Part shown: one piece after another, positions 18,256-42,480 of the stretch | Layout: each line of letters starts with the position of its first letter | How positions within the stretch are numbered: the first letter of the stretch is position 1 | IMG/VR virus record: IMGVR_UViG_3300006874_000032 | Span: 1 to 42,480 of that record | Strand: one strand, 5' to 3' | DNA length: 42,480 nt | Source of the DNA: a virus | Position numbers and translations under genes: made by a program | Notes under the pieces: model-generated | What the model saw: the letters and a program-made list of their open reading frames with translations, nothing else | Database searches by the model: none | Told to the model about the DNA's origin: nothing

Positions 18256-20462
18256 TGTACGAACAAAATTTAATTAAATCAGTTAGCCCTATTCGTTTAA
18301 ACACTATTAAAAGATTTAATAAGTTAAATAAATGGGAGTATGGTTATAATAAAGATTACGATGTTGTAATTATAAGCAAAACCGGTAAGATAGGAGAAAT
18401 TGTAGAAATACAAAATTTAAAAATAGCGTTACCGTTGGCTCCAAATAATATTAATAAAGAAAATAATAGATGGACAGCTGATGAATACCCAAAAGAATTA
18501 AGTAAAATAAAAACTAGATTTGATTGGGAAACTTACCCAGATGCTTTTAAAAATAAATGGTATGCGTATATTGACAGAGAATTTACCAGGCGTGAAGAAG
18601 GTTATTGGTTTTATAACAAAGACGTCATTACTTATATTACTGGTTCTCATTACATGTACTTGCAGTGGGCTAAAATTGATGTTGGGAAGCCAGACTTCAG
18701 AGAAGCTAATAGAATTTTCTTTATTTTCTGGGAAGCGTGTAAAGCCGATTTTAGGGCTTATGGAATGTGCTATCTTAAAAACCGCCGATCCGGATTTAGT
18801 TTTATGTCTTCAGCGGAATCAGTCAATTTGGCAACAATTACAAAAGATGCACGGTTTGGAATATTGTCCAAATCTGGAGCTGACGCTAAAAAAATGTTCA
18901 CAGATAAGGTTGTACCAATATCCCTTAACTACCCGTTCTTTTTTAAACCAATACAAGACGGAATGGATAGACCAAAATCAGAGCTTGCATTTAGAGTACC
19001 AGCATCAAAACTTACAAAAAAATCAATAGTACAAGTATCTGAAGAAAATGAGTTGGAAGGGTTAGATACAACCATTGACTGGAAAAATACTGGTGATAAC
19101 AGTTACGATGGTGAAAAGCTTAGTTTATTAGTTCACGATGAATCTGGAAAGTGGGAAAGACCAGATAATATATTAAATAACTGGCGTGTTACTAAAACAA
19201 CATTAAGACTAGGTAGTAAGATTATTGGAAAGTGTATGATGGGTTCAACATCAAATTCGCTTGAAAAAGGAGGTTCTAACTTTCAAAAATTATATAATGA
19301 TTCAGATGTCACAAGAAGAAACCGCAATGGACAGACTAGTTCAGGATTATATTCTTTGTTCATACCTATGGAATGGAACTACGAAGGATTCATTGATTCT
19401 TATGGACACCCTGTATTTGAAACTCCAGAAAAACCAATTAAAGGAAATGATGGGGCTGAAATAGAAACCGGTGTTATTAAGTTTTGGGAAAATGAAGTAG
19501 AAGGGCTAAAACACGATAGCGATGGTTTAAATGAATATTACAGACAATTCCCGAGAACGGAAGAACACGCATTTAGAGACGAGGCCAAAAATAGTATATT
19601 TAATTTAACAAAAATATACGAGCAAATAGATTTTAATGAAGATTTAACAAGAAAGGGGTATGTAACAAAAGGTTCTTTTTCTTGGGAAAATGGGATTAAA
19701 GATTCTAAAGTAATGTTTACACCCAATCCAAATGGTAGATTTTTAGTATCCTGGACACCATCTAAAAACATAGAAAACAATGTGATACTTAAAAATGGCA
19801 CCAAATACCCTGGAAATGAACACATGGGGGCTTTCGGTTGTGACTCATATGATATATCAGGCACAACAGATGGGCAAGGATCAAAAGGTGCATTACACGG
19901 TTTAACAAAATTTAGCATGGAGGATGCTCCCGCTAATACATTTTTTTTAGAATATGTTGCACGCCCACAAACTGCTGAAATGTTTTTTGAAGATGTTCTT
20001 ATGGCTTTGGTTTACTATGGTATGCCAATTTTGGCAGAGAATAACAAGCCACGGCTATTGTATCACCTTAAACGTAGAGGCTATAGAGGATTTTCAATGA
20101 ATCGACCAGACAAAGTTTGGAACAAATTGTCAGTAACTGAAAGAGAAATTGGTGGTATTCCAAATACATCTGAAGATATAAAACAAGCTCACGCTGCGGC
20201 TATTGAAACATATATTAATAACCATGTTGGCATCACCCCTGAAGGCGGGGGTAATATATATTTTAATAGAACATTAAATGATTGGGCTAAATTTGATATA
20301 AATAAAAGAACAAAATTTGATGCTGCTATAAGTTCAGGCTTAGCGATTATGGCTTGTAACAGGCATTTATATCATCCTAAACCTAAAGTAGAAAAACAAG
20401 CATTAAATTTAAAAATTTCACGATATAATAATAAAGGATCGCATTCAACAATAATAAAATAG
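18255..20462 (+). CDS. terL: Terminase large subunit (crAss-like type)
   Basis: ATP-driven DNA packaging motor and nuclease, 735 residues. The P-loop region is atypical: L-K-N-R-R-S-G-F-S at about residues 174-182, without the usual G-K-S/T. Walker B is L-L-V-H-D-E, with D295 and E296. The nuclease domain has G-C-D-S-Y-D-I with D530, and R-T-K-F-D-A-A-I near the end with D689, fitting the acidic triad of terminase nucleases. Length and wording match TerL of crAss-like and other Bacteroidota podoviruses. It is preceded by the small-terminase candidate and followed two bases later by the portal gene. Identity is secure; the P-loop variant is noted separately. Confidence 0.9.
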   Translation: MYEQNLIKSVSPIRLNTIKRFNKLNKWEYGYNKDYDVVIISKTGKIGEIVEIQNLKIALPLAPNNINKENNRWTADEYPKELSKIKTRFDWETYPDAFKNKWYAYIDREFTRREEGYWFYNKDVITYITGSHYMYLQWAKIDVGKPDFREANRIFFIFWEACKADFRAYGMCYLKNRRSGFSFMSSAESVNLATITKDARFGILSKSGADAKKMFTDKVVPISLNYPFFFKPIQDGMDRPKSELAFRVPASKLTKKSIVQVSEENELEGLDTTIDWKNTGDNSYDGEKLSLLVHDESGKWERPDNILNNWRVTKTTLRLGSKIIGKCMMGSTSNSLEKGGSNFQKLYNDSDVTRRNRNGQTSSGLYSLFIPMEWNYEGFIDSYGHPVFETPEKPIKGNDGAEIETGVIKFWENEVEGLKHDSDGLNEYYRQFPRTEEHAFRDEAKNSIFNLTKIYEQIDFNEDLTRKGYVTKGSFSWENGIKDSKVMFTPNPNGRFLVSWTPSKNIENNVILKNGTKYPGNEHMGAFGCDSYDISGTTDGQGSKGALHGLTKFSMEDAPANTFFLEYVARPQTAEMFFEDVLMALVYYGMPILAENNKPRLLYHLKRRGYRGFSMNRPDKVWNKLSVTEREIGGIPNTSEDIKQAHAAAIETYINNHVGITPEGGGNIYFNRTLNDWAKFDINKRTKFDAAISSGLAIMACNRHLYHPKPKVEKQALNLKISRYNNKGSHSTIIK

Positions 20463-20463
20463 C

Positions 20464-22887
20464 ATGGCGGAAACAATATTAAAGTCTTCTTTCCCGAGCC
20501 AAATTGCTTCAGACGAAGAAAAAGCAAGCTCAGAGTACGGATTAAAAGTAGCCCGCGCTATTGAGCATGAGTGGTTCAAAAGAGATTCAGGCGCAACAAG
20601 ATTCTACTCTAATAGAGATGAGTTCCACAGATTAAGATTATATGCAAGAGGTGAACAGTCTGTAAAAAAATATAAAGATGAATTATCAATAAACGGTGAT
20701 TTATCATACTTAAATTTAGATTGGAAACCGGTACCAATCATTCCTAAGTTTGTAGACATAGTTGTTAACGGGATGTCAGATAGAGCTTTTGACATTAAAG
20801 CTTTTTCGCAGGACCCATCATCTGTAAAGCAGCGTTCCGAATATGTAGAAAGTATTACTCGCGATATGCAAACACGTGAGCTGAATGATGCAATACAAGA
20901 ACAGCTTGGAATAAATGTGTATAGCAACGATAAAGATAAGTTGCCAGAGGATGAAAATGAGTTAGCATTGCATATGCAACTTGAATATAAACAAGCTATT
21001 GAAATTGCTGAAGAGCAAGCAATAAATTCTATACTAAACCAGAATAACTATGAGTTAACAAAAAGACGTGTTAACTATGATTTAACAGTATTAGGTATAG
21101 CTGCGTTAAAAAACCACTTTAATAAATCAGAAGGGATTAAAGTTGAATATGTAGATCCCGCAGATTTAGTTTACTCTTATACTTATTCACCATATTTTGA
21201 CGATGTATATTACGTTGGGGAAGTAAAAAGCGTTACAATAAACGAACTTAAGAAACAATTTCCTAATTTAACAGACGAAGACTTAAGTAACATAACAAAA
21301 CAAGGCGTGCAAACAGCAGCGTCTCATAATAGATATATTAATGAAGACTCAGTATTAGATGCAAACACGATACAGATTCTTTATTTTAATTACAAAACTT
21401 ATAACAATGAAGTTTACAAAATTAAAACAACAGCTACGGGAGCTTCAAAAGCGATTGAAAAAAATGATCAATTCAATCCGCCAAAAGATCCAAGATCTCT
21501 TTTTGAAAAAGTAAGTCGTTCTGTTGAAGTAGTTTATGATGGCGCGTTTGTATTAGGGACACAACAAATACTTAAGTGGGAACTTGCCAAAAATATGGTA
21601 CGTCCTAAAAGTGATACAACAAAGGTAATGATGAATTACAATATTGTTGCTCCTAGAATATACAAAGGTAGAATAGAATCATTAGTTAGTAGAATTACAA
21701 GTTTTGCTGATATGATTCAACTCACGCATTTAAAACTTCAGCAAGTTATGTCAAGAATGATACCTGACGGTGTTTATCTTGATGCTGATGGATTAGCTGA
21801 AATAGATTTAGGTAATGGTACTAACTATAATCCACAAGAAGCATTAAATATGTTCTTCCAAACAGGTTCTGTTATTGGTAGATCATTAACTGTGGACGGG
21901 GATATGAACCCGGGTAAGGTACCTATTCAAGAGCTAACATCCAATGGTGGTAATAATAAAATAAGTTCTTTGATAAGTACTTATAATTATTACCTTCAAA
22001 TGATTCGCGACGTTACGGGGTTAAACGAAGCACGTGATGGTAGTGTTCCAGATCAATATGCGTTAGTAGGCGTTCAAAAATTAGCAGCAGCAAATTCTAA
22101 TACAGCAACGCGCCATATATTACAGTCGGGATTATATTTAACAGCAAAAACAGCTGAGTCGATTTCATTACGTATTTCTGATATATTAGAATATAGTCCA
22201 ACTAGAGATGCATTTATATCTAGCATTGGAAGATTTAATGTTGGCACGCTTGATGACATTAAGAACATGCACTTGCATGACTTTGGTATTTTTATTGAGT
22301 TAGCTCCAGACGATGAAGAAAAAGCAATGCTCGAGAATAATATTCAAGCGGCCTTAGCTAAGGATCAAATATATTTAGAAGATGCTATTGATATTAGAGA
22401 AATAAAAAATATTAAATTAGCTAACCAGTTATTAAAGGTGCGTCGTAAGAAAAAATTCCAGCAAGATAGACAAGTACAGCAGGAAAATATTCAAATGCAA
22501 AGTCAAAGCAATGCTCAAGCAGCACAAGTAGCGGCGCAGGCTGATATACAAAAGCAGCAAGCTATAACGCAACAAAAAGCAGAGTTAGCACAAATTCAGG
22601 CTGACTTAGAAATGCGAAAACTTCAAAATGAAAAAGAGCTTAAAAAAGAACTTATGAAATATGAGTTTGATCTTAATATGGCTATAAAAGACAAGGAAGC
22701 AGAAGCGTTTACTAATAAAGAAAAGTATAAAGAAGACAGGAAAGACGAAAGAACTCGTATTCAAGCTACTCAGCAATCTCAACTAATAGAGCAAAGAAAA
22801 GACAGAAAAGGTGAACAAGCATTTGAATCCGCGGGTAATGACACAATGGGGAGCGGATTTAATTTAGAAATGTTTGAACCCAGATAA
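20464..22887 (+). CDS. Portal protein
   Basis: An 807-residue portal forming the dodecameric DNA entry ring at one capsid vertex. It starts with Met-Ala two bases after TerL. The N-terminal half has E-H-E-W-F-K-R-D and a stem region with A-R-G-E-Q. Residues about 160-260 include L-T-V-L-G-I-A-A-L-K-N and Y-V-D-P-A-D-L-V-Y, as in large portals of Bacteroidota podoviruses. Residues about 510-540 hold D-V-T-G-L-N-E-A-R-D. From about 655 to 790 the chain is Gln/Ala/Lys-rich and predicted coiled coil, likely the barrel or an internal extension. Position after TerL and before scaffold and capsid supports the call. Confidence 0.85.
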   Translation: MAETILKSSFPSQIASDEEKASSEYGLKVARAIEHEWFKRDSGATRFYSNRDEFHRLRLYARGEQSVKKYKDELSINGDLSYLNLDWKPVPIIPKFVDIVVNGMSDRAFDIKAFSQDPSSVKQRSEYVESITRDMQTRELNDAIQEQLGINVYSNDKDKLPEDENELALHMQLEYKQAIEIAEEQAINSILNQNNYELTKRRVNYDLTVLGIAALKNHFNKSEGIKVEYVDPADLVYSYTYSPYFDDVYYVGEVKSVTINELKKQFPNLTDEDLSNITKQGVQTAASHNRYINEDSVLDANTIQILYFNYKTYNNEVYKIKTTATGASKAIEKNDQFNPPKDPRSLFEKVSRSVEVVYDGAFVLGTQQILKWELAKNMVRPKSDTTKVMMNYNIVAPRIYKGRIESLVSRITSFADMIQLTHLKLQQVMSRMIPDGVYLDADGLAEIDLGNGTNYNPQEALNMFFQTGSVIGRSLTVDGDMNPGKVPIQELTSNGGNNKISSLISTYNYYLQMIRDVTGLNEARDGSVPDQYALVGVQKLAAANSNTATRHILQSGLYLTAKTAESISLRISDILEYSPTRDAFISSIGRFNVGTLDDIKNMHLHDFGIFIELAPDDEEKAMLENNIQAALAKDQIYLEDAIDIREIKNIKLANQLLKVRRKKKFQQDRQVQQENIQMQSQSNAQAAQVAAQADIQKQQAITQQKAELAQIQADLEMRKLQNEKELKKELMKYEFDLNMAIKDKEAEAFTNKEKYKEDRKDERTRIQATQQSQLIEQRKDRKGEQAFESAGNDTMGSGFNLEMFEPR

Positions 22888-28147: not shown

Positions 28148-31100
28148 ATGGCAGAACTTAAGCATACATTTGTTAAAGGTCGAATGAATAAAGACCTTGA
28201 CGAAAGACTTATACCTAATGGTGAATATAGAGACGCTTTAAATATTCAAATATCTAGTTCAGAAGGTTCTGATGCTGGTGCTATTGAAAATGTATTGGGT
28301 AATGAAAAAGTTTTTGATTTAGGTTTAACAAATGCAACTTGTATAGGTACAGCCAAAGATACTCTTAATAAAAAAATATATTGGTTTGTTAATTCTGAAG
28401 AATTAAATGGCATTTACGAATATGATATTGTTAATAATATTATTGACCCAATATTAATAGATTTAAAAACTTTTACTGAGGTAACTATTGATAGTTTAAG
28501 AATTGACCCATCTGATGACGGCCTTATCTTAAGGGGGATGAGTTTGGACGAAAGAAAGGATATATTTTTTAATTTTAAACAAGATCCTCCGGTTTATGAT
28601 CAAAGTCTTAAGCAATCCACCCAAGCTTTATGTCGTAATAGCATAAAAATATCTTCCGTATTACCTCCGCTAGAATTTAATGTGCCTAAAAATACAATAA
28701 TAACTACTCCTAAAAATGATACTTCAAATTCTTTAATACTTAATAATGTTTCTTATACTGGCGAAATACAAGCGGGTGTTACTTTTGCTTTTGAATATTT
28801 TAAAGAAAGTGTATTAAATTTTGATTCAAAATATTTTATTTTAGGTGCAAATATTATTGATGGCTTATTATTTTTTACAGATGGATTAAATGAGCCAAAA
28901 GTTATTGATATAGAAAAGTTTAAGCACTATTCAAATAATTTAAAACAAGCCGACGGAACAATACTAAAACAAAATACAATTATAAGATTGTATGATGGAT
29001 CTACAAGAAACATTTTAGAAGAAGATATATGCGTAGCTAAAAAAGCCCCTCAAAAATCTCCTGAATTAAGAATGTCAACTACACTTAGAGATAATGTAGT
29101 AGTTTCAAGTGGTACTTTTAATTTTTATAAAGATGGAGCATTAGTATTACCTTCTAATGAAAATCCAACTATAACAGCGGGGCAAAATTTATATCCAGCT
29201 GCCGGGTGGAAAGAGGGAGATATTATTATTTTTGATTTTGAAAACAATGACAAAACATATGAGGCCACATTAAAAATAAATAGTATAGCCTCTACAACTA
29301 CAGTATTTCAAGTTATTTCTTATAGTGAGCAACCCGAAAACATAGATTATAGTGTTACTGCTACATTGCGGGAAAATGACCCTATATATGAATTAAAATT
29401 TCCAAGATTTGCATATAGATGGAAATACTTAGATAATACATATTCAACATTTTCACCATTTTCAATGCCCGCTTTTATCCCGGGTGAATTTGAATATGAC
29501 GGAAAGAAAGGATTTAATGAAGGCCTTGTAAATAATTTAAGAAGGTTAACATTATTAAACATTGATAAAGGTAATGATACTGTTAAATCGATTGATATTC
29601 TTTTAAAGTTTGATGATGACAATAATGTTTATATTGTTGATACTAAAAAAAGAAAAGATGTTGAAGGAGTAAATTTATCTTTTGAGATAACAAAAGAAAC
29701 AATAAAATCTACTGTACCAAATATTCAGTTACTAAGGCAATGGGACAATGTACCTAAAAAAGCACTTGCGCAAGAAATTGTTGGGAATAGAATAATATAT
29801 GGTAATTATTATCAAAATTATGATATTCCATATGATCCTAAGTTTTCAGTAGCCCCTGTGATTACTGACGGGCTTTTTAAACGAAGTATTAAGTCTAATA
29901 GAAATTATGAGTTAGGCGTTGTTTATGTTGATAAATTTAATAGGCAAACGCCTGTTTTGTCAAATAATTCTGGATCGTATTTTTTAGATAAATCATTTGC
30001 CAATAAAAATACAGCATTATCTGTTAAACTAAATAGCGTTCCCCCAGCGTGGGCCACCCATTTCAAATTTTTTGTAAAAGAAACATCGGCAGAATATTAT
30101 AATATAGCAGCCGATAGGGTGTATTTTGATGACGACAATGGATTTGCTTTTGTTTCATTCCCTTCTTCAGAAAGAAATAAAATTAATGAAGATAGCTATA
30201 TATTATTAAAAAAGAGCCACGGGAAAAATGAAGCTATTAATAGTCCTGACAATAGGTATAAAGTTATTGATATATTTAGTGAGCCTCCAGAATTTGTTCA
30301 TGAAAAAATTGAGCAAGTTGGTATTTTTGGTAATGTTTTATTTTCTGCTTCTTATGGAGATCAAACATTAACGACTGTAAAAAAAGCAGGCTCTACTCCC
30401 ACTAAAGATAATACTACTATATTAATAAGTTCTATTAACTCAAAAGGAACTATTACTTCCCCTCCTACTGCAGACGACGAGAAAGGCGTTGACGACGAGT
30501 CTAAAAAACAATTAGCTGTTGGTAGATACGTGAAATTTGCTAAAGATAATAAAAAATCAAAACTATATAAGATCGCTAGCATTAGATACCACTTAGATGG
30601 TGCCGATGAAGCGGAAATAAAATTTACTGAACCTTTTGGAGATGATATAGATTTTTTATACACTGGAACAAATGACACTATTAGACCTGGTATTGATATG
30701 CGTATATATGAGGATAGCGCTAATGCAGGTGACCCAGAGTTTAATGGAAGGTTTTTTGTAAAGCTTGAATCAAACGGGCTGTTAAAAAAGGCAACAGAAC
30801 AATCTACCTTAAATGACGGTGATATAGAATATTATGCTAAATATTCCGCTAGTTTTGATGGCAAAGATAGAAACCCCAAAAATGCAGATGGAATTAGAAT
30901 TGTACCATTTTTTGTTCGATGGGGTGGAACACCTACAGCGGGTAGCAATTCGACCAGTGGACAAAGACAAACATTTGGGGGAAAACAGTTCCATATTTCT
31001 TTAGAAGTGACCGGGCCAGATGACGATAATATATTATTACAAAATATAGAAACAGGTTCTAAAATACAATTTTCAAACCACGAAACAATATATAGAGTTG

Positions 31101-34100
31101 GTCAGGTTTATGTTCAAACTTTAACATCATTTCCCCAAATTTATCACTTAAGATTTGAGAATGAGGACGGCATTGAGCAAAATTTAACAGAAACGGTTAC
31201 AACAAATAAAACAGATTTAGAACCAAATTTTATAACTTTAAGTTTATTAGCCGAAAGAGACGAAGAAGAAAAAGGCAGTTTTGTTTCAAACCCCGCTATT
31301 TTTGAAACCGAACCAGTTAGACAAAAAACAGAACTTGATATTTATTATGAAAATGACATTGCATATCCAATATCAAAACATTATGACACGCATGTGCTAA
31401 ATTGGTACAATTGTTTCAACTTTAACAACGGCGTTGAAAGCAATAGAATACGAGATGATTTTAATGCTCCTTTTATTAAAAATGGTGTTAAGGCATCTAC
31501 TGTTTTAGAAGAAGGCTATCAAGAAGAACATAAATTTAATGGGCTTATTTGGTCTGGAATTATTAATTCTAAATCTTCTATAAATAATTCTAATCAATTT
31601 ATTCAAGCAGAAACAATAACAAAAGACTTTTTGCCCTCTTACGGTAAAATACAAAAATTGCATACATGGGACAATGCAATGGTTATATTTTTAGAAAATA
31701 AAGTAGTAAGAGTATATGCAAATAAATCTCAATTATTTGACGCAAATGGAAATGGTACTTTAACTTCTACCAATAGAGTTATTGGGGATGCACAAGAGTA
31801 TAATGGTGAATACGGTATTTCAAATGACCCACAATCATTTGCTGCTTTTGGGTTTAGATGTTATTTTGTAGACAGAAAAAACGGTAAAGTTTTACGACTT
31901 TCAAAAGATGGATTAACGCCTATATCAGATGTTAATATGAACGATTTTTTTAGAGATCGTTTAGAAACTAATCAAAAAATATTTGGCTCGTTTAATGAAA
32001 GAGACGAAATATATAATATTTCTTTTGCTGATGATAATGATACAGTTTCATTTTCAGAAAACGTTAATGGCTGGGTAACTAGAAAATCATTTGTTCCTCA
32101 AAATGCTATTTCAATTAATTCAAAATATTTTACATTTAACAATGCAAATTTATGGAAGCATGCATCGACCTTATCTCCGAGAAATAATTTTTATGGAGTA
32201 CAGGGCGAATCGTTTGTAGAATTTGAAATTAATGATGAGCCTTCTGCGATAAAAAGATTTAAAACAATTAGTTACGAAGGAACTAAAGACTGGATTGCGA
32301 CTGTACAAACTGACCAAGAAAAATCAGCTGAAATATCTTTCATAAATAAAGAAAACAAATATTTTTCAAATATTAAAGGAGAAGCAAAGTTTGATTCTGA
32401 AACAGGGGGTAATCTTGATTTAAAAAAGTTTAATTTTCAAGGTTTAGGAAAATCTTCAGAGCAAGACGTTATAGAAGACACAAGAGTTAGAACAGACCTT
32501 ATTTTTGGTATTGATTTAACAATAATAGAGGCTAGCCAATATAATGTTGGAATAACAACACAATCTAAGGTTTTAACCAATTTGCTACCAGGAGAATTAA
32601 TTCCAGCAAATAAAAACACTGTTTCTTTAAATATAACACCTCCAAATAATTATAAATTATTAGCTAGTGATTTTACAGGAACTAACTGTACTTTTGTTCA
32701 AAATGGAGATGGGGTTACTGTAACATATACCCATGGTATAACTTATCAACCAAATATAGATACAACAATACTAATACCTATAAGTGGTGGTAGATTGATA
32801 TTAAAAGAAATTGAGGTTACGATTACTCGTGCTGTTGTATTAAGTAATTCCAATAGCTTGGTAGATTCTAGAGAATTTATTATATCTGGAAGACCAGGAG
32901 AGGTTTATTTAATAACAAATGATCTTTTAACTGCTGATGAAGGATTTGAACTGTTGTCTGGTAATGTTACTATTAGTAATTCTAATATTAATGCTAACTC
33001 GCAAATATCTCAAACAGGGGGAAGCACAACAGAGGTAGCTACTGCGGAATATATTTTAATAGAAAACGGTACAACTTCTATTAATTATACCGTAACTGCA
33101 CGGGCTAGACAGGTAATTATTCCTAATAAAATTGTTCAAAGCAAAAATATAGATACTGGGGCTTTAGAAAATAATCAAGAGCAAAGAAGCCTAAAAATAA
33201 TTGGCGAGCCTGGAGCTATCGTTAGATATGTTTTAAACGATAGTGTATCTAATATACAAGAAGAAACATTAACAATTCCAGGTGGTGGTTTTGTAGATGT
33301 ATTTTTAGATTTTACCGCTACTGACGATAATTATAATATTGCAAAAACATATACATTAATATTTTCTGTAGGAGAAAAAACAGAGTTTGGCGAAAGCTTT
33401 GGTTCTAGAACAGTTACTTTCAATAGATTAGCTAAATCACAAAAAACATTACAAATTAAAGCTTACCATGCGGACTCTGTTAATAATGCTATTAAAACAA
33501 AAAGTTATATTGGTTTTGGTGGCGATGAAATAGATAATGATGAAGTTGAATTTGAATTTACTTTAAACTCAAGTTATGATTATGACATAATTAGTCAACC
33601 CTCATCAAGCAATTTTGTATTTAGCAATGGTAATAAGAATAATGTAACAATCAGTAATGTATCAATAAGTGTTGATCCGGTTAATGAACATATAGTTACT
33701 TTAAATTTTACTGTTGATACTGATGCTATTAATTTTAATGAGTTAGTAACTATTAATTTAGATAGCTTTGTTAATAGAAAAATAACATTAACAATAAGTT
33801 ATAGCGATGTAAATCAAGGCACAGATTACAACGGTTCATTTATAAATAGCTTATCAACAATTCAGGGAATTGCTGGTAGCACAAATAGTAGTCTAAATAG
33901 TATACAGTATAAAATACTAATGGTGGGCAAACAACTATTAGATGGAGTAGGGGAAGACGCTTTACAGCCTAATGAGTTTAGGCTATACGATGCTTTAGTA
34001 AGCGGTAACGATGTTACCGAAACCTATGATGATAACAACGAACTATATTTGACACTTAATGATGTAACAGTAGGTGCTACAATAACATTGCAGCCTAGCG

Positions 34101-35611
34101 CGTTTATTTTCCCAAATGCAGATGCAACCCTTTACATAAGACCATCAAGAGATATAACAGAAGATTTGCCAGTAACTTTACCAAATGACTTCATAGTGGA
34201 AGTAACAGGTATATCACCGGAGTCTGAATTATATCCTCACGAAGGTGGAACGCAACTATGGCAAAAGCCAGTATTCCGCGGTTCTGCTGGTTCCCCAATA
34301 CTTTGGCCAAATGGGCATTTTTCTAGTAGAAGAAGCGATGTGATTACAGAGGTGTCAAATGTAGTTAATACAAAAAGATTGGTACAATTTGTTTATGAAA
34401 TTGATAGAACTATTATAGATACTCGTAGTTTGCATGTCTCTAAATGGGCTCCCTATTCAAATAATAATTACAGTTTATTGCTTGTAAATAGTAATATTAT
34501 AGAAGAAGCTGCAAGTGGTACGTACACGGCTATTGATGGAAATAGTGTTACGGTAACTGGCCCTTATGTAATTACTAATAACGGTTTAACTTTAACTGTT
34601 AATTTATTAGTTGATATTGAATATGTGACAACAAATAGTGAAACCTTTACCAGCCTAGTAATTAGAACAGCAATAGATCATAGAGCAAGTTCTTACCCAA
34701 GAAGCGGCACAGAAGGTGAGTCTGAGCAATTTGTTTTCAGCACTAAAAATGAGGCGTGTAACGCAACAAGTGACCCACTTATATGGAAAGTATATAATAC
34801 TGATGGAAAAACAGGTAATCCTAAAGTAGGTTCATTTATTTCTGGTAATTTGTCGCCTACCTCAATTAGTTCTAATTCTCCAATCAAAATTTTTGTACCT
34901 CGATTAGGACAGCATATAAGAGTTCCTTTAGAAAATAGATACTTTAAAGACTTTACAAATTCAAAAATATATAAGTTAGACAATAAAGGAGTTATTGAGG
35001 ATATTATGGATTTGTGCACTTCATCAGACGACTCTGCTGTCCCAATTAAAGGAAACATAAATGTTTACCCATTAGATATTCAAAGATCTAGTTTGGGGGC
35101 AAATGTTTCTGACGTTGATTTTGATTCTCAATCCCAATTTCAAGGCATTACAAAGTCTTTTTTTGAATATAGAATTAAAATGAGATTTGATGGGGAATAT
35201 CCTTGGCAGGTAGGCACAGCCACTGAAGATGTATTTTTTACGATTAGGCTTAAATTACAAGATTTTACAGGACAAAATGATTCATTTTTTGATTGGTTTA
35301 ATCCAATTCACGCATTTAAAGTTGAAAATGATAATAACACTATACGAAGTTTTGATATAGTCAATTTTAATGACGATTATGTAGATATTAAAGTTACTTT
35401 TGCATCAAAAAATTTAAATGGAATTGATGACACGTTCAAATTATATGTTAATCCTAAAAAAGGCGCAATTTCTCCACTATCAGATAGAAGTATTTTTAAT
35501 TTATATGTTGATGTAGTTTTAGATTTTCCAGAAGAAACAAACATGGAGACCAATCTATTTAACCCATATAATTTGGGAGCAATTTTGTATCGAGAAGGAT
35601 TTGGGTTTTAA
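28148..35611 (+). CDS. Giant tail stabilisation / tail tubular B-like protein (2487 aa)
   Basis: A very long virion protein. The N-terminus K-G-R-M-N-K-D-L-D-E-R-L-I-P-N-G-E-Y-R-D is a hallmark of podovirus stabilisation proteins (T7 gp12-like) in Bacteroidota phages. Residues about 50-1290 are beta-rich, propeller-like, with Y-G-I-S-N-D-P-Q-S-F-A and R-C-Y-F-V-D-R-K-N-G-K-V-L-R-L-S near 1225-1260. Residues about 1480-2300 look like a string of Ig/fibronectin-like or bacterial adhesin modules, rich in Asn, Ser, Thr, Ile. The last 180 residues form a compact end ending in Y-R-E-G-F-G-F. No signal peptide or membrane segment is seen. Such C-terminal extensions may form the tail hub or spikes. 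It is coupled to the upstream ring gene by a 3-base gap. Confidence 0.8.
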   Translation: MAELKHTFVKGRMNKDLDERLIPNGEYRDALNIQISSSEGSDAGAIENVLGNEKVFDLGLTNATCIGTAKDTLNKKIYWFVNSEELNGIYEYDIVNNIIDPILIDLKTFTEVTIDSLRIDPSDDGLILRGMSLDERKDIFFNFKQDPPVYDQSLKQSTQALCRNSIKISSVLPPLEFNVPKNTIITTPKNDTSNSLILNNVSYTGEIQAGVTFAFEYFKESVLNFDSKYFILGANIIDGLLFFTDGLNEPKVIDIEKFKHYSNNLKQADGTILKQNTIIRLYDGSTRNILEEDICVAKKAPQKSPELRMSTTLRDNVVVSSGTFNFYKDGALVLPSNENPTITAGQNLYPAAGWKEGDIIIFDFENNDKTYEATLKINSIASTTTVFQVISYSEQPENIDYSVTATLRENDPIYELKFPRFAYRWKYLDNTYSTFSPFSMPAFIPGEFEYDGKKGFNEGLVNNLRRLTLLNIDKGNDTVKSIDILLKFDDDNNVYIVDTKKRKDVEGVNLSFEITKETIKSTVPNIQLLRQWDNVPKKALAQEIVGNRIIYGNYYQNYDIPYDPKFSVAPVITDGLFKRSIKSNRNYELGVVYVDKFNRQTPVLSNNSGSYFLDKSFANKNTALSVKLNSVPPAWATHFKFFVKETSAEYYNIAADRVYFDDDNGFAFVSFPSSERNKINEDSYILLKKSHGKNEAINSPDNRYKVIDIFSEPPEFVHEKIEQVGIFGNVLFSASYGDQTLTTVKKAGSTPTKDNTTILISSINSKGTITSPPTADDEKGVDDESKKQLAVGRYVKFAKDNKKSKLYKIASIRYHLDGADEAEIKFTEPFGDDIDFLYTGTNDTIRPGIDMRIYEDSANAGDPEFNGRFFVKLESNGLLKKATEQSTLNDGDIEYYAKYSASFDGKDRNPKNADGIRIVPFFVRWGGTPTAGSNSTSGQRQTFGGKQFHISLEVTGPDDDNILLQNIETGSKIQFSNHETIYRVGQVYVQTLTSFPQIYHLRFENEDGIEQNLTETVTTNKTDLEPNFITLSLLAERDEEEKGSFVSNPAIFETEPVRQKTELDIYYENDIAYPISKHYDTHVLNWYNCFNFNNGVESNRIRDDFNAPFIKNGVKASTVLEEGYQEEHKFNGLIWSGIINSKSSINNSNQFIQAETITKDFLPSYGKIQKLHTWDNAMVIFLENKVVRVYANKSQLFDANGNGTLTSTNRVIGDAQEYNGEYGISNDPQSFAAFGFRCYFVDRKNGKVLRLSKDGLTPISDVNMNDFFRDRLETNQKIFGSFNERDEIYNISFADDNDTVSFSENVNGWVTRKSFVPQNAISINSKYFTFNNANLWKHASTLSPRNNFYGVQGESFVEFEINDEPSAIKRFKTISYEGTKDWIATVQTDQEKSAEISFINKENKYFSNIKGEAKFDSETGGNLDLKKFNFQGLGKSSEQDVIEDTRVRTDLIFGIDLTIIEASQYNVGITTQSKVLTNLLPGELIPANKNTVSLNITPPNNYKLLASDFTGTNCTFVQNGDGVTVTYTHGITYQPNIDTTILIPISGGRLILKEIEVTITRAVVLSNSNSLVDSREFIISGRPGEVYLITNDLLTADEGFELLSGNVTISNSNINANSQISQTGGSTTEVATAEYILIENGTTSINYTVTARARQVIIPNKIVQSKNIDTGALENNQEQRSLKIIGEPGAIVRYVLNDSVSNIQEETLTIPGGGFVDVFLDFTATDDNYNIAKTYTLIFSVGEKTEFGESFGSRTVTFNRLAKSQKTLQIKAYHADSVNNAIKTKSYIGFGGDEIDNDEVEFEFTLNSSYDYDIISQPSSSNFVFSNGNKNNVTISNVSISVDPVNEHIVTLNFTVDTDAINFNELVTINLDSFVNRKITLTISYSDVNQGTDYNGSFINSLSTIQGIAGSTNSSLNSIQYKILMVGKQLLDGVGEDALQPNEFRLYDALVSGNDVTETYDDNNELYLTLNDVTVGATITLQPSAFIFPNADATLYIRPSRDITEDLPVTLPNDFIVEVTGISPESELYPHEGGTQLWQKPVFRGSAGSPILWPNGHFSSRRSDVITEVSNVVNTKRLVQFVYEIDRTIIDTRSLHVSKWAPYSNNNYSLLLVNSNIIEEAASGTYTAIDGNSVTVTGPYVITNNGLTLTVNLLVDIEYVTTNSETFTSLVIRTAIDHRASSYPRSGTEGESEQFVFSTKNEACNATSDPLIWKVYNTDGKTGNPKVGSFISGNLSPTSISSNSPIKIFVPRLGQHIRVPLENRYFKDFTNSKIYKLDNKGVIEDIMDLCTSSDDSAVPIKGNINVYPLDIQRSSLGANVSDVDFDSQSQFQGITKSFFEYRIKMRFDGEYPWQVGTATEDVFFTIRLKLQDFTGQNDSFFDWFNPIHAFKVENDNNTIRSFDIVNFNDDYVDIKVTFASKNLNGIDDTFKLYVNPKKGAISPLSDRSIFNLYVDVVLDFPEETNMETNLFNPYNLGAILYREGFGF

Positions 35612-35626
35612 TAAAAAATATTAAAA

Positions 35627-35950: not shown

Positions 35951-35961
35951 ATATAATAATT

Positions 35962-36642
35962 ATGGCAGGAGATATATCAGGTTTTGGTAAAGCTATGCAA
36001 GGCACAGCAAAAAGCGACCCTGGGGCTTTTGGACAAATAGCTGAAGGATTAGCGGGCATGGCCGGTGGATTAATCGGTGGTAGAGCAAGAAGGAAGGAAC
36101 AGCGTGCCGCCAGACAAGAACTTAAACAACAAAGACAAGCGTATGAAACTTTTGAGTTTAAGGATCCGTCTGCTAACTTAACTAACCCCTTTGAAGATTT
36201 AACAGTAAATCAACAACAAGCACAATTTGCGGCTCAACAACAACAACAGGGTTTAGCTAGCGCACTTGGTGGTTTGCAACAAGCGGCTGGAGGATCTGGC
36301 ATTGCTGCATTAGCACAAACTTTAGCGCAACAACAATCTGCTAATTTACAGCAAGCTTCTGCTAGTATTGGTCAGCAAGAAGCTGCTAATCAAATGGCTA
36401 GAGCAAGAGGGCAACAAACTTTAGAACAGCAAAGAGCAGCTGGTACGGCTGCACTAGAAGCAAAAGAATTTGGTAGAACAGAAACATTATTCGGTATGGC
36501 TCAGCAGCGTAAAGCCGCAGCAGATGAAGCAAGGCGTGCCGCAACTGAAGGTTTAGTTGGTGGAATAGCAAATATAGCTGTAGGCGCTGGACGAGTAGTT
36601 GCTGGGGCAGCAACCGGAGGCGCTTCTGAATTAGGCAGCTAA
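35962..36642 (+). CDS. Internal virion protein (T7 gp14-like role)
   Basis: A 226-residue Gln/Ala/Gly-rich protein. A Gly-rich hydrophobic stretch (residues 25-40, L-A-G-M-A-G-G-L-I-G-G) is followed by basic R-R-K-E-Q-R-A-A-R. Then comes N-P-F-E-D-L-T-V-N-Q-Q-Q-A-Q-F, known to me from marine phage internal proteins, and Q-Q-A-A-G-G-S-G-I-A-A-L-A-Q with A-S-I-G-Q-Q-E-A-A-N. The C-terminal 35 residues are again Gly/Ala/Val-rich (I-A-V-G-A-G-R-V-V-A-G-A). These amphipathic and hydrophobic ends suit a protein that leaves the capsid and enters the cell envelope during ejection. Role inferred. Confidence 0.7.
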   Translation: MAGDISGFGKAMQGTAKSDPGAFGQIAEGLAGMAGGLIGGRARRKEQRAARQELKQQRQAYETFEFKDPSANLTNPFEDLTVNQQQAQFAAQQQQQGLASALGGLQQAAGGSGIAALAQTLAQQQSANLQQASASIGQQEAANQMARARGQQTLEQQRAAGTAALEAKEFGRTETLFGMAQQRKAAADEARRAATEGLVGGIANIAVGAGRVVAGAATGGASELGS

Positions 36643-36655
36643 TAAAATAAAAAAA

Positions 36656-38008
36656 ATGGCAAATCAACAATTAATTAGAGGCGCGCGACAAGCAGCAGGT
36701 AAATTTACTGACGTAACAGGGCAGGTGCGACAAGCTGTTCTACGTGGGGAACAAGCTTTATTGCGTAGAAAAGCAGAAGAACAGAGATTACAAGAAAATA
36801 ATGCTCGTGCTATTGCCCAACTACCGCAGCTAGATGAAAGTCAAGTACCTATCCAAATGAGGGAATGGGCTACCGGAGAGGCAATGAAATTGCGAGATGA
36901 AGCTATTAACGCAATAAGTAATCCTGATTTAAGCCCTGTTGAAAAACAAATGGCAATTAGCCAATCTATTGCTAAAATAAATGGTGTAGCCGCAAAAACA
37001 AATGATTTTAAGCAATGGATAGTAAATGTAGCGGACCTCCAACAAGAAGATTTAAGCAAACTAAACAGCGAAACTCTTTATGGAAGAATAAACGATATAT
37101 ATGAGGGCAATTTTAAGGTAGCTGACGGTAAATTTATATTTTCAGATGGGGAAGAAAAGGACTTTAATTCTTTGGTAAACACAAGACCTATAACAAGAAG
37201 GTCAGACGCATACCAATCACAAGTAAAAGCATTGGGCGAACAATTTGAAAAATATGCGCTCCAAGGATGGAATGAAGATGAATTTAATTCTAAAATTGAC
37301 CAAGTACTCAGTGATGAAAAATATACTGACGGAGATATCGCTAGTATTGCTGTTGACGAACTAGGTTTATCACCGGAGCTTGCTAAAAATATTCAAGATG
37401 ACTTTGAAGATAATGGCCGCCTTGACAAGGTAAACAAAGAAGAATTAGTCTTTAAAATAAAAGAACAATATAAAATAGCTGCAAAAACAGCATATGATAG
37501 GGCAAAAAGTTTATATGATCGCAAAACGGCTATTAAAAAAACAGAAAAGCCGCCAAAACCCATGGACCCTAATATTATTCTTGGAGCTGAAGAAGCCGCT
37601 AAATTTATAAACGATCCTTTAGCATATTTTAGATCTGTTTCGGGTGATAAAGCTACATATGACGAAAATGATAAAATATTTCAGTTAATTACATATGATA
37701 AAGAAGGGAACGAAACACCTATTTCATATGACCTAACGAACGAAAGCGATATAATAAGGCTTTTTAATGAAATACAAGCTAACAAAGCTTATTCTCCTTC
37801 ACAGCGTGTGAAAATTGAACAAGGACTAAAAAAATTATTAAAAAGCCCTGAGTTTAAGGAATATATGCAATCTGTACAAACACAACTAAGTCAAAGGGAA
37901 AAACAAGCCAAAGCAGAAACGCAAGGAGTTATTGATAAGCTAAAAGGAAAATCAAATAATGCCGGAACAGTAAATACGGGCAATTTACCAATTGAAACAC
38001 AAGAATAG
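36656..38008 (+). CDS. Helical internal virion / ejection protein
   Basis: A 450-residue protein, nearly all helical, starting M-A-N-Q-Q-L-I-R-G-A-R-Q-A-A-G. Residues 20-60 are a charged coiled coil (E-Q-A-L-L-R-R-K-A-E-E-Q-R-L-Q-E). Residues about 185-215 and 225-260 have Asp/Glu-rich helices. A Lys/Pro linker near residue 300 (E-K-P-P-K-P-M-D-P-N) separates a C-terminal part with D-P-L-A-Y-F-R-S-V-S-G-D and a last helical tail (Q-L-S-Q-R-E-K-Q). No enzymatic motif is seen. Its place between the gp14-like gene and the giant multidomain gene suggests an ejection-channel component. The next gene starts one base after the stop. Confidence 0.6.
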   Translation: MANQQLIRGARQAAGKFTDVTGQVRQAVLRGEQALLRRKAEEQRLQENNARAIAQLPQLDESQVPIQMREWATGEAMKLRDEAINAISNPDLSPVEKQMAISQSIAKINGVAAKTNDFKQWIVNVADLQQEDLSKLNSETLYGRINDIYEGNFKVADGKFIFSDGEEKDFNSLVNTRPITRRSDAYQSQVKALGEQFEKYALQGWNEDEFNSKIDQVLSDEKYTDGDIASIAVDELGLSPELAKNIQDDFEDNGRLDKVNKEELVFKIKEQYKIAAKTAYDRAKSLYDRKTAIKKTEKPPKPMDPNIILGAEEAAKFINDPLAYFRSVSGDKATYDENDKIFQLITYDKEGNETPISYDLTNESDIIRLFNEIQANKAYSPSQRVKIEQGLKKLLKSPEFKEYMQSVQTQLSQREKQAKAETQGVIDKLKGKSNNAGTVNTGNLPIETQE

Positions 38009-38009
38009 C

Positions 38010-41000
38010 ATGTTTGAATTTAATAACGAAGAATATACGCTTGAACAAATAGAAGCAGCTGCTCAACAATCTAATATAGCCGTAGAAGATTATATTAAAA
38101 AATATAATATTAAAGAGCTGGGAAAGACAACGACCACATCACCGGGTGCGGATGTGGAGGAAACTGCAGCGCTCGAAACACCAAGTATGGCATCCAGCTT
38201 GGAAGATATTTCTTTGGAATCACCTCAAACAGAAACAGTTGACTCTACTGTAGATTTACAACCAAAAGATGATAGAGCCGGTTTTTTAGGGTCTATAGCT
38301 TTATCTCCATCTAAAATACCCGCTAATATACAGAAGCAGGAGATTGGGCTTAGAGATATGGTTTTATTAAGCATTGATAGATGGATAAATCCAGAGCTTA
38401 GTAGAAAAGAACGCGTTGCTAAACTTAATGAGTATTTTAATACTGACGATGACCCAATTGCTGGGTATCCTGGTTTAGGTTTTATAAGAACAGCTGATAC
38501 AAAAAGCGAAGCAGAAGAGGTTATAAAAGAAATAAGAGATAAACAATTAAAAACAGAATCTCAAAGTATTTCTGAATCTATTGAAAAAGGTAATGTAGTT
38601 GATGCGGCTTTTTTAGCAGCTGACGGTTTAATACAAACAATACCTTCAATAGTCTTTAGCGCATACGGCGGTGGTGGTATTGTCACTCATGGAGCATTAA
38701 TTGCTGGTGAAAAATTTAATGATGAGTATTTAAATAATCCAAAAGCTTCAGAATCTGCGATTATAGCTAACGCTCTTGGAACAGGGGCTATTCAAGCTGG
38801 GGCAGATTTTTTATTTAGAGGTTTAATGAAAACCACCGGAGTTATTGCTAAAGAAGGATCTGCACAACAAGCTAAGCAATTTCTTAGTAATGGAATATCA
38901 AGAATAGCATTAAAATATTTAGCAGTTCCTGCAGAAGGTTTAGTTGAAGTAACTCAAGATTTAGCAACAAAAGGTCTTGATGATTTAACGTTAGGAAGAG
39001 ATTTTTATAAGAATATAAACAAGTATGAACTTTTAGATAATTTTCTTTTAGGCACACTAATGCAGGGCGGTGTTACTGTCACCTCTTATATGTCAGGAGC
39101 TAATGCAGACCAAGTAGCTTATGCTGAAGGATTATTAATGCCAGAAAACGTAAAACCTGTTTTAGAGTCTTATGCTGAAAATTATTCTAATATAGCTAAT
39201 CAAATAAGTAAGGAACAAAACCCTGAAGCTCAACAAATATTAAAAAATCAATTATTAAATATTGAAGGCAAAATATCTACGTTAAGAAGGAAATATAGGA
39301 CTTCTTTATATGCAATGAATGATGCTGAGCTAACTGAGTATGCCACAAATAAAGATAGAATAGAAAAAATAAAGTCAGGTGTACAAAATACCACAACACA
39401 AGAGGGAAGGAAAATTTTATTTAAAGAAATAGACAATTTAAATAAAGCAAACGCGGAAATACTTAAAGATGCTACAACAAGAAAGTTTGAGGAGACTACA
39501 GCTAAAGCAGAGGCTGATGCTAAAAAACTTGGTGTAGATTTTACTGTTATAGAAACAGCTCAAGAATTTGATGAATATATAAAATCAAAAGGTGGTGATA
39601 GCGAAGCGTTGTACAGCGGAAATGATGGTGCAATTTTACCATTACCAGGCAATAAGCAAGAAATAGTAATAAACCAAGAAATAGCCCTACAAGAACAAGC
39701 TGTAAATGTTGCATCTCACGAATTATTGCATGCTGTTCTTAATCAAACTTTATTAAGAAAAGGTGCAGCTTCTAAAAATTTAGCAAATGCTTTAATTGAA
39801 GAACTGGGCAAAATAGATATAAATAAAGTTGCAGATTCAGATTTAGCTAGAAGGTTACGGGCTTATTCTAAAGAGCCTGAAGCTGTTCAATATGAAGAGG
39901 TTCTTACTTTGTTTTCTGACGCTTTAGCCACAGGCGATATAAAATTTAACGAAGGAATTTTTACTAAAATAGGCGATAGCACAAGAAGATTATTTAGAGG
40001 TTTTGGTAAAGAAATTAAATTTAATTCAGGCAGGGACGTATTTAATTTCATAAAAGATTTTAATAATAGTATAGATGAAGGAATAATAAAAGGAGCTAAA
40101 GAAGGATTTAAAGGAAAGCTTGTTAATGTACAAAAAATTGGAAAAGAAATAGAAGAAGAAATAAGATTATTTTCTAAATCTAAAGAAGCATCTGAAAAAG
40201 TACAACGAATATACGAAGAAAAAGGAAAAAAAGGAGAGGCCGAAATATTAGAGCTATATAGACCAATGGCTAATAAAATTGCAGATAAATATCGCAATGT
40301 TCCTGGATTTGATAAACAATTATTATCTGATGAAATACTAACTGGCAAGCGTGGAATATTTGATTTAATAAGATCATATAAACCAGAAGAAAACCCAGGT
40401 GTACCTATTGCAGCCTACGTAAACAAACTTGCAAGAAAAAGAGCAATTGAGGCGGCAAATCGTATTTTAGACACGGAATTTACGGAAGACATTACAGGGG
40501 CTAAAGGTGTCACAGATACAACTACAGAAGAAGTAACTGAGCGCATTGAAGATAAAAAACCAAAAGAAAAAGTTAGTCTAAGAAAACAATTAGGACTAGA
40601 TGAAACAATAAAGCCTACTGTTGTAAATGCTGTAAAGAAAACATTTGGAACAAAAATACCTGAAGTAACATCAAATAAGTTTAGACCTGAACTAGAAAAA
40701 AGTTTTAGAACAGAACTTAAAAAACCGTTGGCTAAGCTAATGGGTAGAACAGAAGATTATAGATCTTTTCTTTCTAACAATTTTGAAGCTATATACGAAG
40801 CTATACCCCAATATGTTATAAATAAAAGGTTTAATGCTTTTGCAGAAGCTGCTGTAGACGCAAACGGGAAGCCTTTAAGAGAAAAAACAGCTGAAGGCAA
40901 GAAAATATTTACTAAGAAAAAAATCGTAAAAGCAGAGTGGCTAAAATACTTTTTAGGTAATGATGTTGGCCGTTCTACTCAAGGTACTCGCAAAACTGCT

Positions 41001-42480
41001 TTAGCTGAAGCTTTAGCCGAACAGTTTGCTTACGATGCTACCATGGAAGTTTTAGCTGATCCTAATATTATTGAAAAAATTAAAGGTATTAGCGAATTAA
41101 CTGGACAGAAGTTTGTTGATAATTACTTAGATGAGGTAAGTAAAGCAATTGAAAGACCAACAACATTTAAATTTAGCCTTAGCACTAAAATTGATTCTGA
41201 TTGGGTAACAGACCCATTAAATCCTTTGAGTAGCGATAAAAAATATAATTTTACTGTTGGAAAAATACCTTTTGAATCTAAAGTATTTGATGAGCCTGAT
41301 TTTGAATATGAAATATTTGAAGGTACGTTTGGCATTGAAGATGGAACATTAGCTAATGACCCTAAATCTGTATTATTAGCTTTTTCAGACAAAGAAACGG
41401 GAAGCACAGAAATATTAGGAACCGCTACACAAGGATTGACTAGTGCATTTCAAGTTTTTGGAACGGTTGCAAATAGCACAATAGACTTAGTTAAAAAAGA
41501 AAAATTAAATTCTGTAGCATTTACGGCTAAAGAAAAAAGCAGAATACGATTATATAATGCTTTAGCACATAAATTTGCAAAAGAACTTGGATGGGATTAT
41601 TATGCTTTTCCCCTTAATGAAGGAGAAACTGGCTTTATTACTTATGACCCTAAAATAATTCCAAGCGACGAAAATTCTAACGTATCAAAGGACGTAATAA
41701 AATTTTCTAAATCAACAAGCATATTTGACAAAAATGCAAATAAAGTTTTATTTAAAGACGAATTAGGGAATGTTTTTAGTATTGTTAGTGAGCAAATAAA
41801 ATTAAACCCTAAAACAAAATTTACTTCTTTTGAAAAAGCATTTTTAGATTATTCTAAAAATAATTTTAAAAGAGGTGATGGTAATCCTTATAATGCAAAA
41901 GTATACCGATCAATAGCTTGGGAATACTACGCAGGAAAGCAAATTGAATTTCTTAATCCAGATTTAAAACTAGTAAGTGATTTTAAAGGATTTTCTAATA
42001 AGGGCATTGGTGATTTAGAGTTTTTGCATGAACCTTCTGGTAAAAAAATATATGCTGAAGTTAAGCTCTTAAGTAAAAGAGGTAAGTGGCCTCAAATGGG
42101 GAGTGGCGGAATTGTGTTTGACTATGGTTCAGATACATTCGTTAAGCCAGAAAGAGGGAACCCAATAGAAATATTTGATTATGTTGTGGCTGTACTTAAG
42201 AAAGAAGGTTATAACAATAAATTAAAAAAAGTACTAGATAAGCTAGGCATTGAGAATTTAGCTGATTTAACACCAGAAATGGTACCATTATTTGATAAAA
42301 TTAAAAAAGAATTAAATATAACAATACCTCTAGGTGATGCAACTAATATAATTAATTCATATGCAAAAAAGGGTGTAAATTTAATGGTTAGTGGTAACGA
42401 TATTTCTAACTTACAAATACATTCATTAGATGCAAATAATTATGGCTTAAATATTCCTACTTTAAAAGGAAACGGCTCGC
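38010..42480 (+). CDS. Giant multidomain internal virion / polyvalent-type protein, 3'-truncated
   Basis: Open from the ATG at 38010 to the right edge (1490 codons visible, no stop). Residues 1-100 are acidic and disordered. Residues about 210-380 are Gly/Ala-rich with hydrophobic helices, like ejection proteins. H570-E571-L-L-H574 with E629/E630 downstream looks like a zincin. Residues about 745-825 resemble sigma-70 region 2 (P-M-A-N-K-I-A-D-K-Y, G-I-F-D-L-I). A conserved phage module (about 845-1010) follows. Residues about 1118-1195 look GNAT-like (R-I-R-L-Y-N-A-L-A). D1335 with E1350-V-K1352 fits a PD-(D/E)XK nuclease. This mix recalls polyvalent proteins described by Iyer, Aravind and co-workers. 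It is probably ejected with DNA. All activities are inferred. Confidence 0.75.
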   Translation, partial: MFEFNNEEYTLEQIEAAAQQSNIAVEDYIKKYNIKELGKTTTTSPGADVEETAALETPSMASSLEDISLESPQTETVDSTVDLQPKDDRAGFLGSIALSPSKIPANIQKQEIGLRDMVLLSIDRWINPELSRKERVAKLNEYFNTDDDPIAGYPGLGFIRTADTKSEAEEVIKEIRDKQLKTESQSISESIEKGNVVDAAFLAADGLIQTIPSIVFSAYGGGGIVTHGALIAGEKFNDEYLNNPKASESAIIANALGTGAIQAGADFLFRGLMKTTGVIAKEGSAQQAKQFLSNGISRIALKYLAVPAEGLVEVTQDLATKGLDDLTLGRDFYKNINKYELLDNFLLGTLMQGGVTVTSYMSGANADQVAYAEGLLMPENVKPVLESYAENYSNIANQISKEQNPEAQQILKNQLLNIEGKISTLRRKYRTSLYAMNDAELTEYATNKDRIEKIKSGVQNTTTQEGRKILFKEIDNLNKANAEILKDATTRKFEETTAKAEADAKKLGVDFTVIETAQEFDEYIKSKGGDSEALYSGNDGAILPLPGNKQEIVINQEIALQEQAVNVASHELLHAVLNQTLLRKGAASKNLANALIEELGKIDINKVADSDLARRLRAYSKEPEAVQYEEVLTLFSDALATGDIKFNEGIFTKIGDSTRRLFRGFGKEIKFNSGRDVFNFIKDFNNSIDEGIIKGAKEGFKGKLVNVQKIGKEIEEEIRLFSKSKEASEKVQRIYEEKGKKGEAEILELYRPMANKIADKYRNVPGFDKQLLSDEILTGKRGIFDLIRSYKPEENPGVPIAAYVNKLARKRAIEAANRILDTEFTEDITGAKGVTDTTTEEVTERIEDKKPKEKVSLRKQLGLDETIKPTVVNAVKKTFGTKIPEVTSNKFRPELEKSFRTELKKPLAKLMGRTEDYRSFLSNNFEAIYEAIPQYVINKRFNAFAEAAVDANGKPLREKTAEGKKIFTKKKIVKAEWLKYFLGNDVGRSTQGTRKTALAEALAEQFAYDATMEVLADPNIIEKIKGISELTGQKFVDNYLDEVSKAIERPTTFKFSLSTKIDSDWVTDPLNPLSSDKKYNFTVGKIPFESKVFDEPDFEYEIFEGTFGIEDGTLANDPKSVLLAFSDKETGSTEILGTATQGLTSAFQVFGTVANSTIDLVKKEKLNSVAFTAKEKSRIRLYNALAHKFAKELGWDYYAFPLNEGETGFITYDPKIIPSDENSNVSKDVIKFSKSTSIFDKNANKVLFKDELGNVFSIVSEQIKLNPKTKFTSFEKAFLDYSKNNFKRGDGNPYNAKVYRSIAWEYYAGKQIEFLNPDLKLVSDFKGFSNKGIGDLEFLHEPSGKKIYAEVKLLSKRGKWPQMGSGGIVFDYGSDTFVKPERGNPIEIFDYVVAVLKKEGYNNKLKKVLDKLGIENLADLTPEMVPLFDKIKKELNITIPLGDATNIINSYAKKGVNLMVSGNDISNLQIHSLDANNYGLNIPTLKGNGS

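What the first reader, a model, noticed from the sequence alone, without database searches (positions are those of the whole stretch)
38010..42480. Very large internal protein with several unrelated enzyme-like segments
At least 1490 residues in one chain combine ejection-protein-like hydrophobic regions with zincin-like, sigma-factor-like, GNAT-like and nuclease-like segments. The design matches polyvalent proteins delivered with phage or plasmid DNA to act on the host at once. This specific combination, at the end of the virion gene run, is not one I know as described.
Basis: partly seen in the sequence, partly recalled or inferred. Interest (0 to 1): 0.7.

Follow-up and report, generated by a model that had tools for sequence, protein, structure and literature searches.

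The report
Modular giant phage protein, probably injected
Marine phages, probably infecting Bacteroidota, carry a very large multi-part protein at the end of their particle genes that joins a metal-dependent protease, a piece resembling a bacterial transcription factor, and exchangeable enzyme parts; it is probably injected into the host with the DNA, a known strategy with an unusual set of parts.

Summary
An ATG-started frame (38010-42480) encodes at least 1,490 residues and runs off the contig's right end. Forty-one relatives from viral contigs (complete ones 1,878-3,366 aa) show what is missing: a conserved C-terminal core of about 640 aa.

Of the four named segments:
- Zincin (aa 551-688): strongly supported. 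In 28 aligned members only H, E, H and a downstream E are invariant.
- Sigma-like (aa 735-830): supported as remote homology to sigma-70 region 2. A blind PDB profile search returns sigma factors first, but key sigma functional residues are mostly lost.
- Nuclease-like (aa 1251-1490): supported as PD-(D/E)xK by motif; homologues sit in the same slot in other members.
- GNAT-like (aa 1057-1234): weak. It resembles DUF6934; the model is poor.

The gene closes a virion block after two smaller genes, as in Cellulophaga, Flavobacterium and Tenacibaculum podophages. It is a recombination hotspot: a phage 95.8% identical over 7 kb upstream shares, in this gene's DNA, only a 275-bp island, the sigma-like module.

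Best reading: a polyvalent protein packaged as the giant third ejection protein, with a fixed sigma-like module and swappable effector cassettes. It is a new variant of a known kind. Packaging and host action are untested.

The parts
38010..42480 (+). Giant multidomain protein gene, 5' complete, 3' cut by the contig end (1,490 codons present; full length predicted at roughly 2,150-2,300 aa by analogy)
38010..38228 (+). Conserved N-terminal segment (aa 1-73), found in 26 of 42 giants
38502..39119 (+). Gly/Ala-rich, moderately hydrophobic region (aa 165-370); part of it homologous to the elemoA giant structural protein
   Evidence: no classical TM helix found
39660..40073 (+). Zincin-like metallopeptidase (aa 551-688); HELLH at 39717-39731 (H570, E571, H574) and E630 at 39897-39899
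   Evidence: the four residues are invariant in 31/31 and 28/28 members
40212..40499 (+). Sigma-70 region-2-like module (aa 735-830); a 275-bp DNA island (40209-40483) is 91.6% identical to a phage otherwise dissimilar in the DNA of this gene
40500..41177 (+). Conserved domain following the sigma-like module (aa 831-1056), fold family unknown; from about aa 860 confidently modelled (pLDDT mostly above 85), no significant PDB match
41178..41711 (+). Variable cassette, part 1: DUF6934/GNAT-like (aa 1057-1234), also in L008, L009, L012 and L015
   Evidence: (DUF6934 E 3.8e-5, below curated cut-off)
41760..42479 (+). Variable cassette, part 2: PD-(D/E)xK nuclease-like (aa 1251-1490); E1305, D1335, E1350, K1352, plus a partly present C-terminal accessory element
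36656..38008 (+). Upstream 450-aa protein, second of the putative ejection triad
35962..36642 (+). Upstream 226-aa Ala/Gln/Gly-rich protein, first of the putative ejection triad; homologue upstream of 34 of 38 relatives checked
28148..35611 (+). 2,487-aa virion structural protein (PHROG 14478) in the same virion block
18255..22887 (+). Terminase large subunit and portal, placing the phage with Bacteroidota podophages

Best explanation
The gene encodes the giant third member of an ejection-protein set (226 aa, 450 aa, giant) of a marine podovirus related to phages of Flavobacteriia. The protein is packaged in the virion and leaves with, or just ahead of, the DNA. It is a polyvalent protein. A fixed frame (N-terminal segment, helical region, sigma-region-2-like module with its following domain, and a C-terminal core of about 640 aa beyond the contig edge) carries exchangeable parts: a zincin in most members, and one cassette between the sigma-like module and the core that here holds a DUF6934/GNAT-like and a PD-(D/E)xK-like domain. 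Most likely sequence of events: after ejection the zincin cuts the chain, or a host protein, releasing the parts; the sigma-like module contacts host RNA polymerase, or another partner, to steer or block early host transcription; the cassette enzymes act on host nucleic acid or defence in the first minutes. Shown here: the chain, its modules, catalytic-residue conservation, position, homology and recombination. Inferred: packaging, ejection, cleavage, RNA polymerase contact and targets.
For: Modules: zincin catalytic residues invariant, weak Pfam matches to several metallopeptidase families, homology to zincin regions of the elemoA and Manatee Spring giants. Sigma-like: first two PDB profile hits are sigma factors, E 0.0036 and 0.0088, eight of 34 hits in all; hhalign to E. 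coli sigmas P 0.0011, probability 20.8 against at most 4.8 in 100 column shuffles; phage sigma factors among the viral fold matches. Nuclease: E, D, E-x-K, G, S invariant in seven cassettes, Hjc resolvase among weak PDB hits. Position: last gene of the virion block, same place as giant 'structural protein' genes of phi38:1, elemoA, phi19:3 and Gundel, with remote sequence homology to several of them. Recombination: L058/L026 is 95.8% identical at DNA level from 29538, then unrelated after 37655 except 40209-40483; L002, about 70-79% identical upstream, is 83.6% identical from 37999 to 41054. Cassette diversity. Polyvalent proteins with zincin hubs and GNATs are described in PMC5512222.
Against: No virion proteomics was available for this phage, and none covering the giants of its relatives was found in the papers read; 'structural protein' is the depositors' label. 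Residues of sigma region 2 that bind core RNAP or melt promoters are mostly replaced. No sigma region 4 helix-turn-helix was identified. The GNAT assignment is weak and the second structure model is poor (mean pLDDT 39). The C-terminal core is missing from the window, so the whole protein was not seen.
Confidence: 0.68

Rival explanations
1. It is only a structural ejection-channel protein, like T7 gp16 without host-directed enzymes. The zincin processes the chain during assembly or ejection, and the sigma-like and nuclease-like folds are worn-down remnants used as structural filler.
For: The position and the conserved triad fit a channel protein. Sigma functional residues are mostly lost. The GNAT-like part lacks a clear acetyl-CoA loop.
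Against: Catalytic residues of the zincin and of the nuclease-like cassettes are the invariant ones, and eight other cassettes keep a HAD motif. Cassettes are swapped between near-identical phages, which is unexpected for pure structure.
Confidence: 0.2
2. The protein is made late and acts inside the infected cell or during virion maturation (protease, nuclease), without being packaged.
For: It sits in the late gene block, and zincin or nuclease functions would suit maturation. No packaging data were found.
Against: Genes in the same place are labelled virion or structural proteins in cultured relatives, and the two preceding genes and the order resemble ejection sets such as the crassvirus cargo described in PMC10172136.
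Confidence: 0.1
3. The sigma-like module is not related to sigma factors; a helical domain of another family gives chance similarity. The rest of the polyvalent reading stands.
For: Single-sequence Pfam scans give no sigma match. Foldseek against PDB gives no significant match. HHalign probability is only 21%.
Against: An unbiased PDB profile search ranks sigma factors first and second, in the correct region and register. Column shuffles, a reversed profile and the zincin profile do not match sigmas. Viral fold matches include several sigma factors.
Confidence: 0.2

Closest known systems
Polyvalent proteins of phages and conjugative elements (Iyer et al. 2017, PMC5512222)
   Same: Large multidomain chain from a phage, zincin metallopeptidase as common hub, unrelated enzyme domains combined and exchanged, genes beside virion genes.
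   Different: A sigma-region-2-like module kept in 39 of 42 members; the word sigma does not occur in that paper. The cassette set seen here (DUF6934, PD-(D/E)xK, HAD) was not matched to an architecture in that paper.
Giant terminal 'structural protein' genes of Cellulophaga phi38:1 (gp101), Flavobacterium elemoA (gp21), Tenacibaculum Gundel (gp074), Cellulophaga phi19:3 (gp129)
   Same: Same place after the same virion genes, similar size. Remote homology in the helical region (elemoA), zincin (elemoA) and C-terminal core (Gundel); phi38:1 gp101 matches the N-terminal half of a relative (L008).
   Different: The sigma-like module is not convincingly detected in them; the other domains differ.
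Crassvirus cargo proteins and virion RNA polymerase (PMC10172136)
   Same: Several proteins of increasing size stored in the virion and ejected before the DNA, in podoviruses of Bacteroidota.
   Different: Crassviruses carry their own RNA polymerase proteins; none was recognised in the parts examined here, and the giant has a sigma-like piece instead.
T7 gp14/gp15/gp16 ejection set (from general knowledge)
   Same: Three consecutive internal-protein genes, increasing in size, at the end of the structural block.
   Different: No lysozyme or transglycosylase domain recognised in the Pfam scans; no sequence homology to gp16 found.

Membership tests
Polyvalent proteins | At least two unrelated enzyme or effector domains in one chain encoded by a phage | tested here: met
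   Zincin and PD-(D/E)xK-like motif in one reading frame
Polyvalent proteins | Domain shuffling between otherwise related elements | tested here: met
Polyvalent proteins | Delivered into the host with the DNA | not testable with these tools
   Inferred from position only
Zincin metallopeptidases | HExxH plus a downstream glutamate | tested here: met
   H570, E571, H574, E630 invariant in 31/31
Zincin metallopeptidases | Significant match to a known zincin family profile or structure | tested here: inconclusive
   Best Pfam match among members E 1.9e-4 (M78), below the curated cut-off for the window itself; no PDB match by sequence
Sigma-70 family | Region 2 homology | tested here: met
   Remote level only:
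Sigma-70 family | Core-binding residues of region 2.2 and promoter-melting aromatics of region 2.3 | tested here: not met
   Position aligned to D403 is D in 31/39 and that aligned to Y430 is Y in 35/39; positions aligned to Q406, E407, N409, W433 and W434 differ (residue roles from general knowledge)
Sigma-70 family | Region 4 helix-turn-helix | tested here: not met
   No Pfam match in the window protein or the two complete relatives scanned
PD-(D/E)xK nucleases | Conserved E ... D ... E-x-K catalytic set | tested here: met
   Invariant in seven divergent cassettes
PD-(D/E)xK nucleases | Fold | tested here: inconclusive
   Model poor; weak PDB profile hits to Hjc resolvase, E 0.67-1.0
GNAT acetyltransferases | GNAT fold with acetyl-CoA loop | tested here: inconclusive
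   Low-confidence beta-beta-alpha-beta-alpha-beta-beta order; DUF6934 below cut-off; two acetyltransferases among non-significant fold hits
Podovirus ejection-protein sets (T7 type) | Three consecutive internal-protein genes ending the structural block | tested here: met
   Gene order in the window and relatives; that the genes encode internal proteins is inferred
Podovirus ejection-protein sets (T7 type) | Presence inside the virion | not testable with these tools
   No proteomics for this phage

The most novel reading that the evidence does not exclude
A phage lineage ships a ready-made sigma-region-2-like domain into the host inside an ejected giant protein, so that host RNA polymerase is captured before any phage gene is expressed, while neighbouring cassettes of the same chain are exchanged between phages as effectors.
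Probability: 0.25. Interest if true: 0.78.

Novelty: new variant of a known kind. Interest (0 to 1): 0.58.

Why it matters
If right, it adds a transcription-factor-like piece to the known stock of injected phage proteins and gives a natural series of about 40 variants in which one gene, between near-identical neighbours, exchanges its effector parts. That makes the early minutes of infection in marine Bacteroidota testable with cultured relatives of the same gene order.

Tried and rejected
No match of the window protein in 50,697 phage records by tblastn, nor of the cassette in plasmids. One genome-contig scan with the sigma-like module found no cellular relative. A viral-contig scan with the nuclease segment alone found none; its relatives appeared only when cassettes of homologous giants were compared. 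A PDB search with the zincin profile gave no protease, so that assignment rests on the motif, weak family matches and homologues. The second structure model (GNAT and nuclease) was too poor to use. Joining the contig's two ends to complete the gene was considered and dropped: the open frame at the left edge is not the frame the giant would need.

Full report
What is there. The frame 38010-42480 starts with ATG two bases after the preceding gene, almost as in the relative L002, and is open to the last base. The window is the complete virus record, so the 3' end is lost. Terminase and portal match Bacteroidota podophages (Flavobacterium elemo, Cellulophaga, Tenacibaculum, and an uncultured genome from Manatee Spring at 65% terminase identity), which suggests a host in that phylum.

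Relatives. Scans with the protein, its sigma-like module and the C-terminal core returned 41 distinct homologous giants. Five are cut at the 3' side by a contig end and one has an open 5' end; the complete ones are 1,878-3,366 aa. Profiles built here locate an N-terminal segment in 26 of the 42 sequences (window included), a zincin in 31, the sigma-like module with its following domain in 39, and the core in all 41 relatives. The window is the only member without the core, so it very probably has it beyond the edge.

Zincin. In 28 aligned members, mostly about 20-40% identical to the window, the only invariant columns are H, E, H and E; the wider set gives 31 of 31. Members match several metallopeptidase families weakly. 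The region is also homologous to parts of the elemoA and Manatee Spring giants (E 6.6e-10 and 6.1e-7), and an elemo structural protein is among the viral fold matches (probability 0.95, E 0.4).

Sigma-like module. A profile of 30 members searched blindly against all PDB chains put RNA polymerase sigma factors first and second (E 0.0036 and 0.0088), with FliA and RpoS further down, eight of 34 hits. Profile comparison with five E. coli sigmas gave P 0.0011 and probability 20.8; 100 column shuffles reached at most 4.8, and reversed and zincin profiles gave under 1. Viral fold matches include several phage sigma factors, none individually significant. The homology is thus supported but distant. 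Function is another matter: by the alignments, positions equivalent to D403 and Y430 of E. coli sigma-70 are kept, whereas those equivalent to Q406, E407, N409, W433 and W434 are not (residue roles from general knowledge of sigma-70). Promoter melting is therefore unlikely, and RNA polymerase binding is a hypothesis.

Cassette. Between the sigma-like module and the core the members differ. The window has a DUF6934/GNAT-like part shared with L008, L009, L012 and L015 and then a nuclease-like part. Comparison with cassettes of L045, L046, L049, L019, L060 and L061 leaves seven invariant columns, E, D, G, E, K, G, S, which fit the PD-(D/E)xK catalytic set. The seven sequences were picked partly by a motif search for the D and E-x-K, so the invariance of those residues is in part built in; the E before them, the G-S after them and the shared C-terminal element, which begins at the window's end, were not part of the search. 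Hjc resolvase is among the weak PDB profile hits. Eight other giants carry a HAD-type FDFDDTL or similar motif, and six cassettes match a polynucleotide kinase family.

Recombination. L058/L026, one phage, is 95.8% identical in DNA to window 29538-36607 and 96.5% to 36643-37655, then shares no detectable DNA similarity in the giant gene except 40209-40483 at 91.6% identity, residues 734-825, the sigma-like module itself (protein similarity of 55% extends over residues 686-1053). L002 is 70-79% identical in parts of the upstream genes but 83.6% identical over 37999-41054, up to near the cassette. Replacement of the gene, and of parts within it, roughly follows domain borders.

Context and mechanism. 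The gene is last in a virion block after a 2,487-aa structural protein, a 226-aa Ala/Gln/Gly-rich protein (homologue upstream of 34 of 38 relatives checked) and a 450-aa protein. The same order, ending in a giant labelled structural protein, is found in phi38:1, elemoA, phi19:3 and Gundel; sequence links exist for the helical region, zincin and core. Crassvirus cargo (PMC10172136) and polyvalent proteins (PMC5512222) are the nearest described systems. I conclude that this is a polyvalent ejection protein, with packaging and action inferred, not shown.

Noticed in passing
window 3292-4848: Phage-encoded GroEL-type chaperonin (Pfam Cpn60 E 1.8e-52, PHROG 5725).
   Followed up: no
window 6798-11543: 1,581-aa protein with four DUF4183 stretches and a tail-fibre repeat match.
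   Followed up: no
window 14165-16558: 797-aa tail-fibre-like protein with DUF7483 and laminin-G/concanavalin-like domains.
   Followed up: no
L017, L030, L031, L041, L048, L050, L051, L052 cassettes: HAD-type phosphatase motif (FDFDDTLA or similar) between the sigma-like module and the core, where the window has its nuclease; a polynucleotide kinase family matches some cassettes.
   Followed up: partly
L002 17079-20341 (minus strand): Downstream of the giant in a relative, opposite-strand genes that look like ribonucleotide reductase subunits (by eye).
   Followed up: no
L052 5177-15274: The longest giant found, 3,366 aa, with sigma-like module and core but no zincin detected by the profile.
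   Followed up: no
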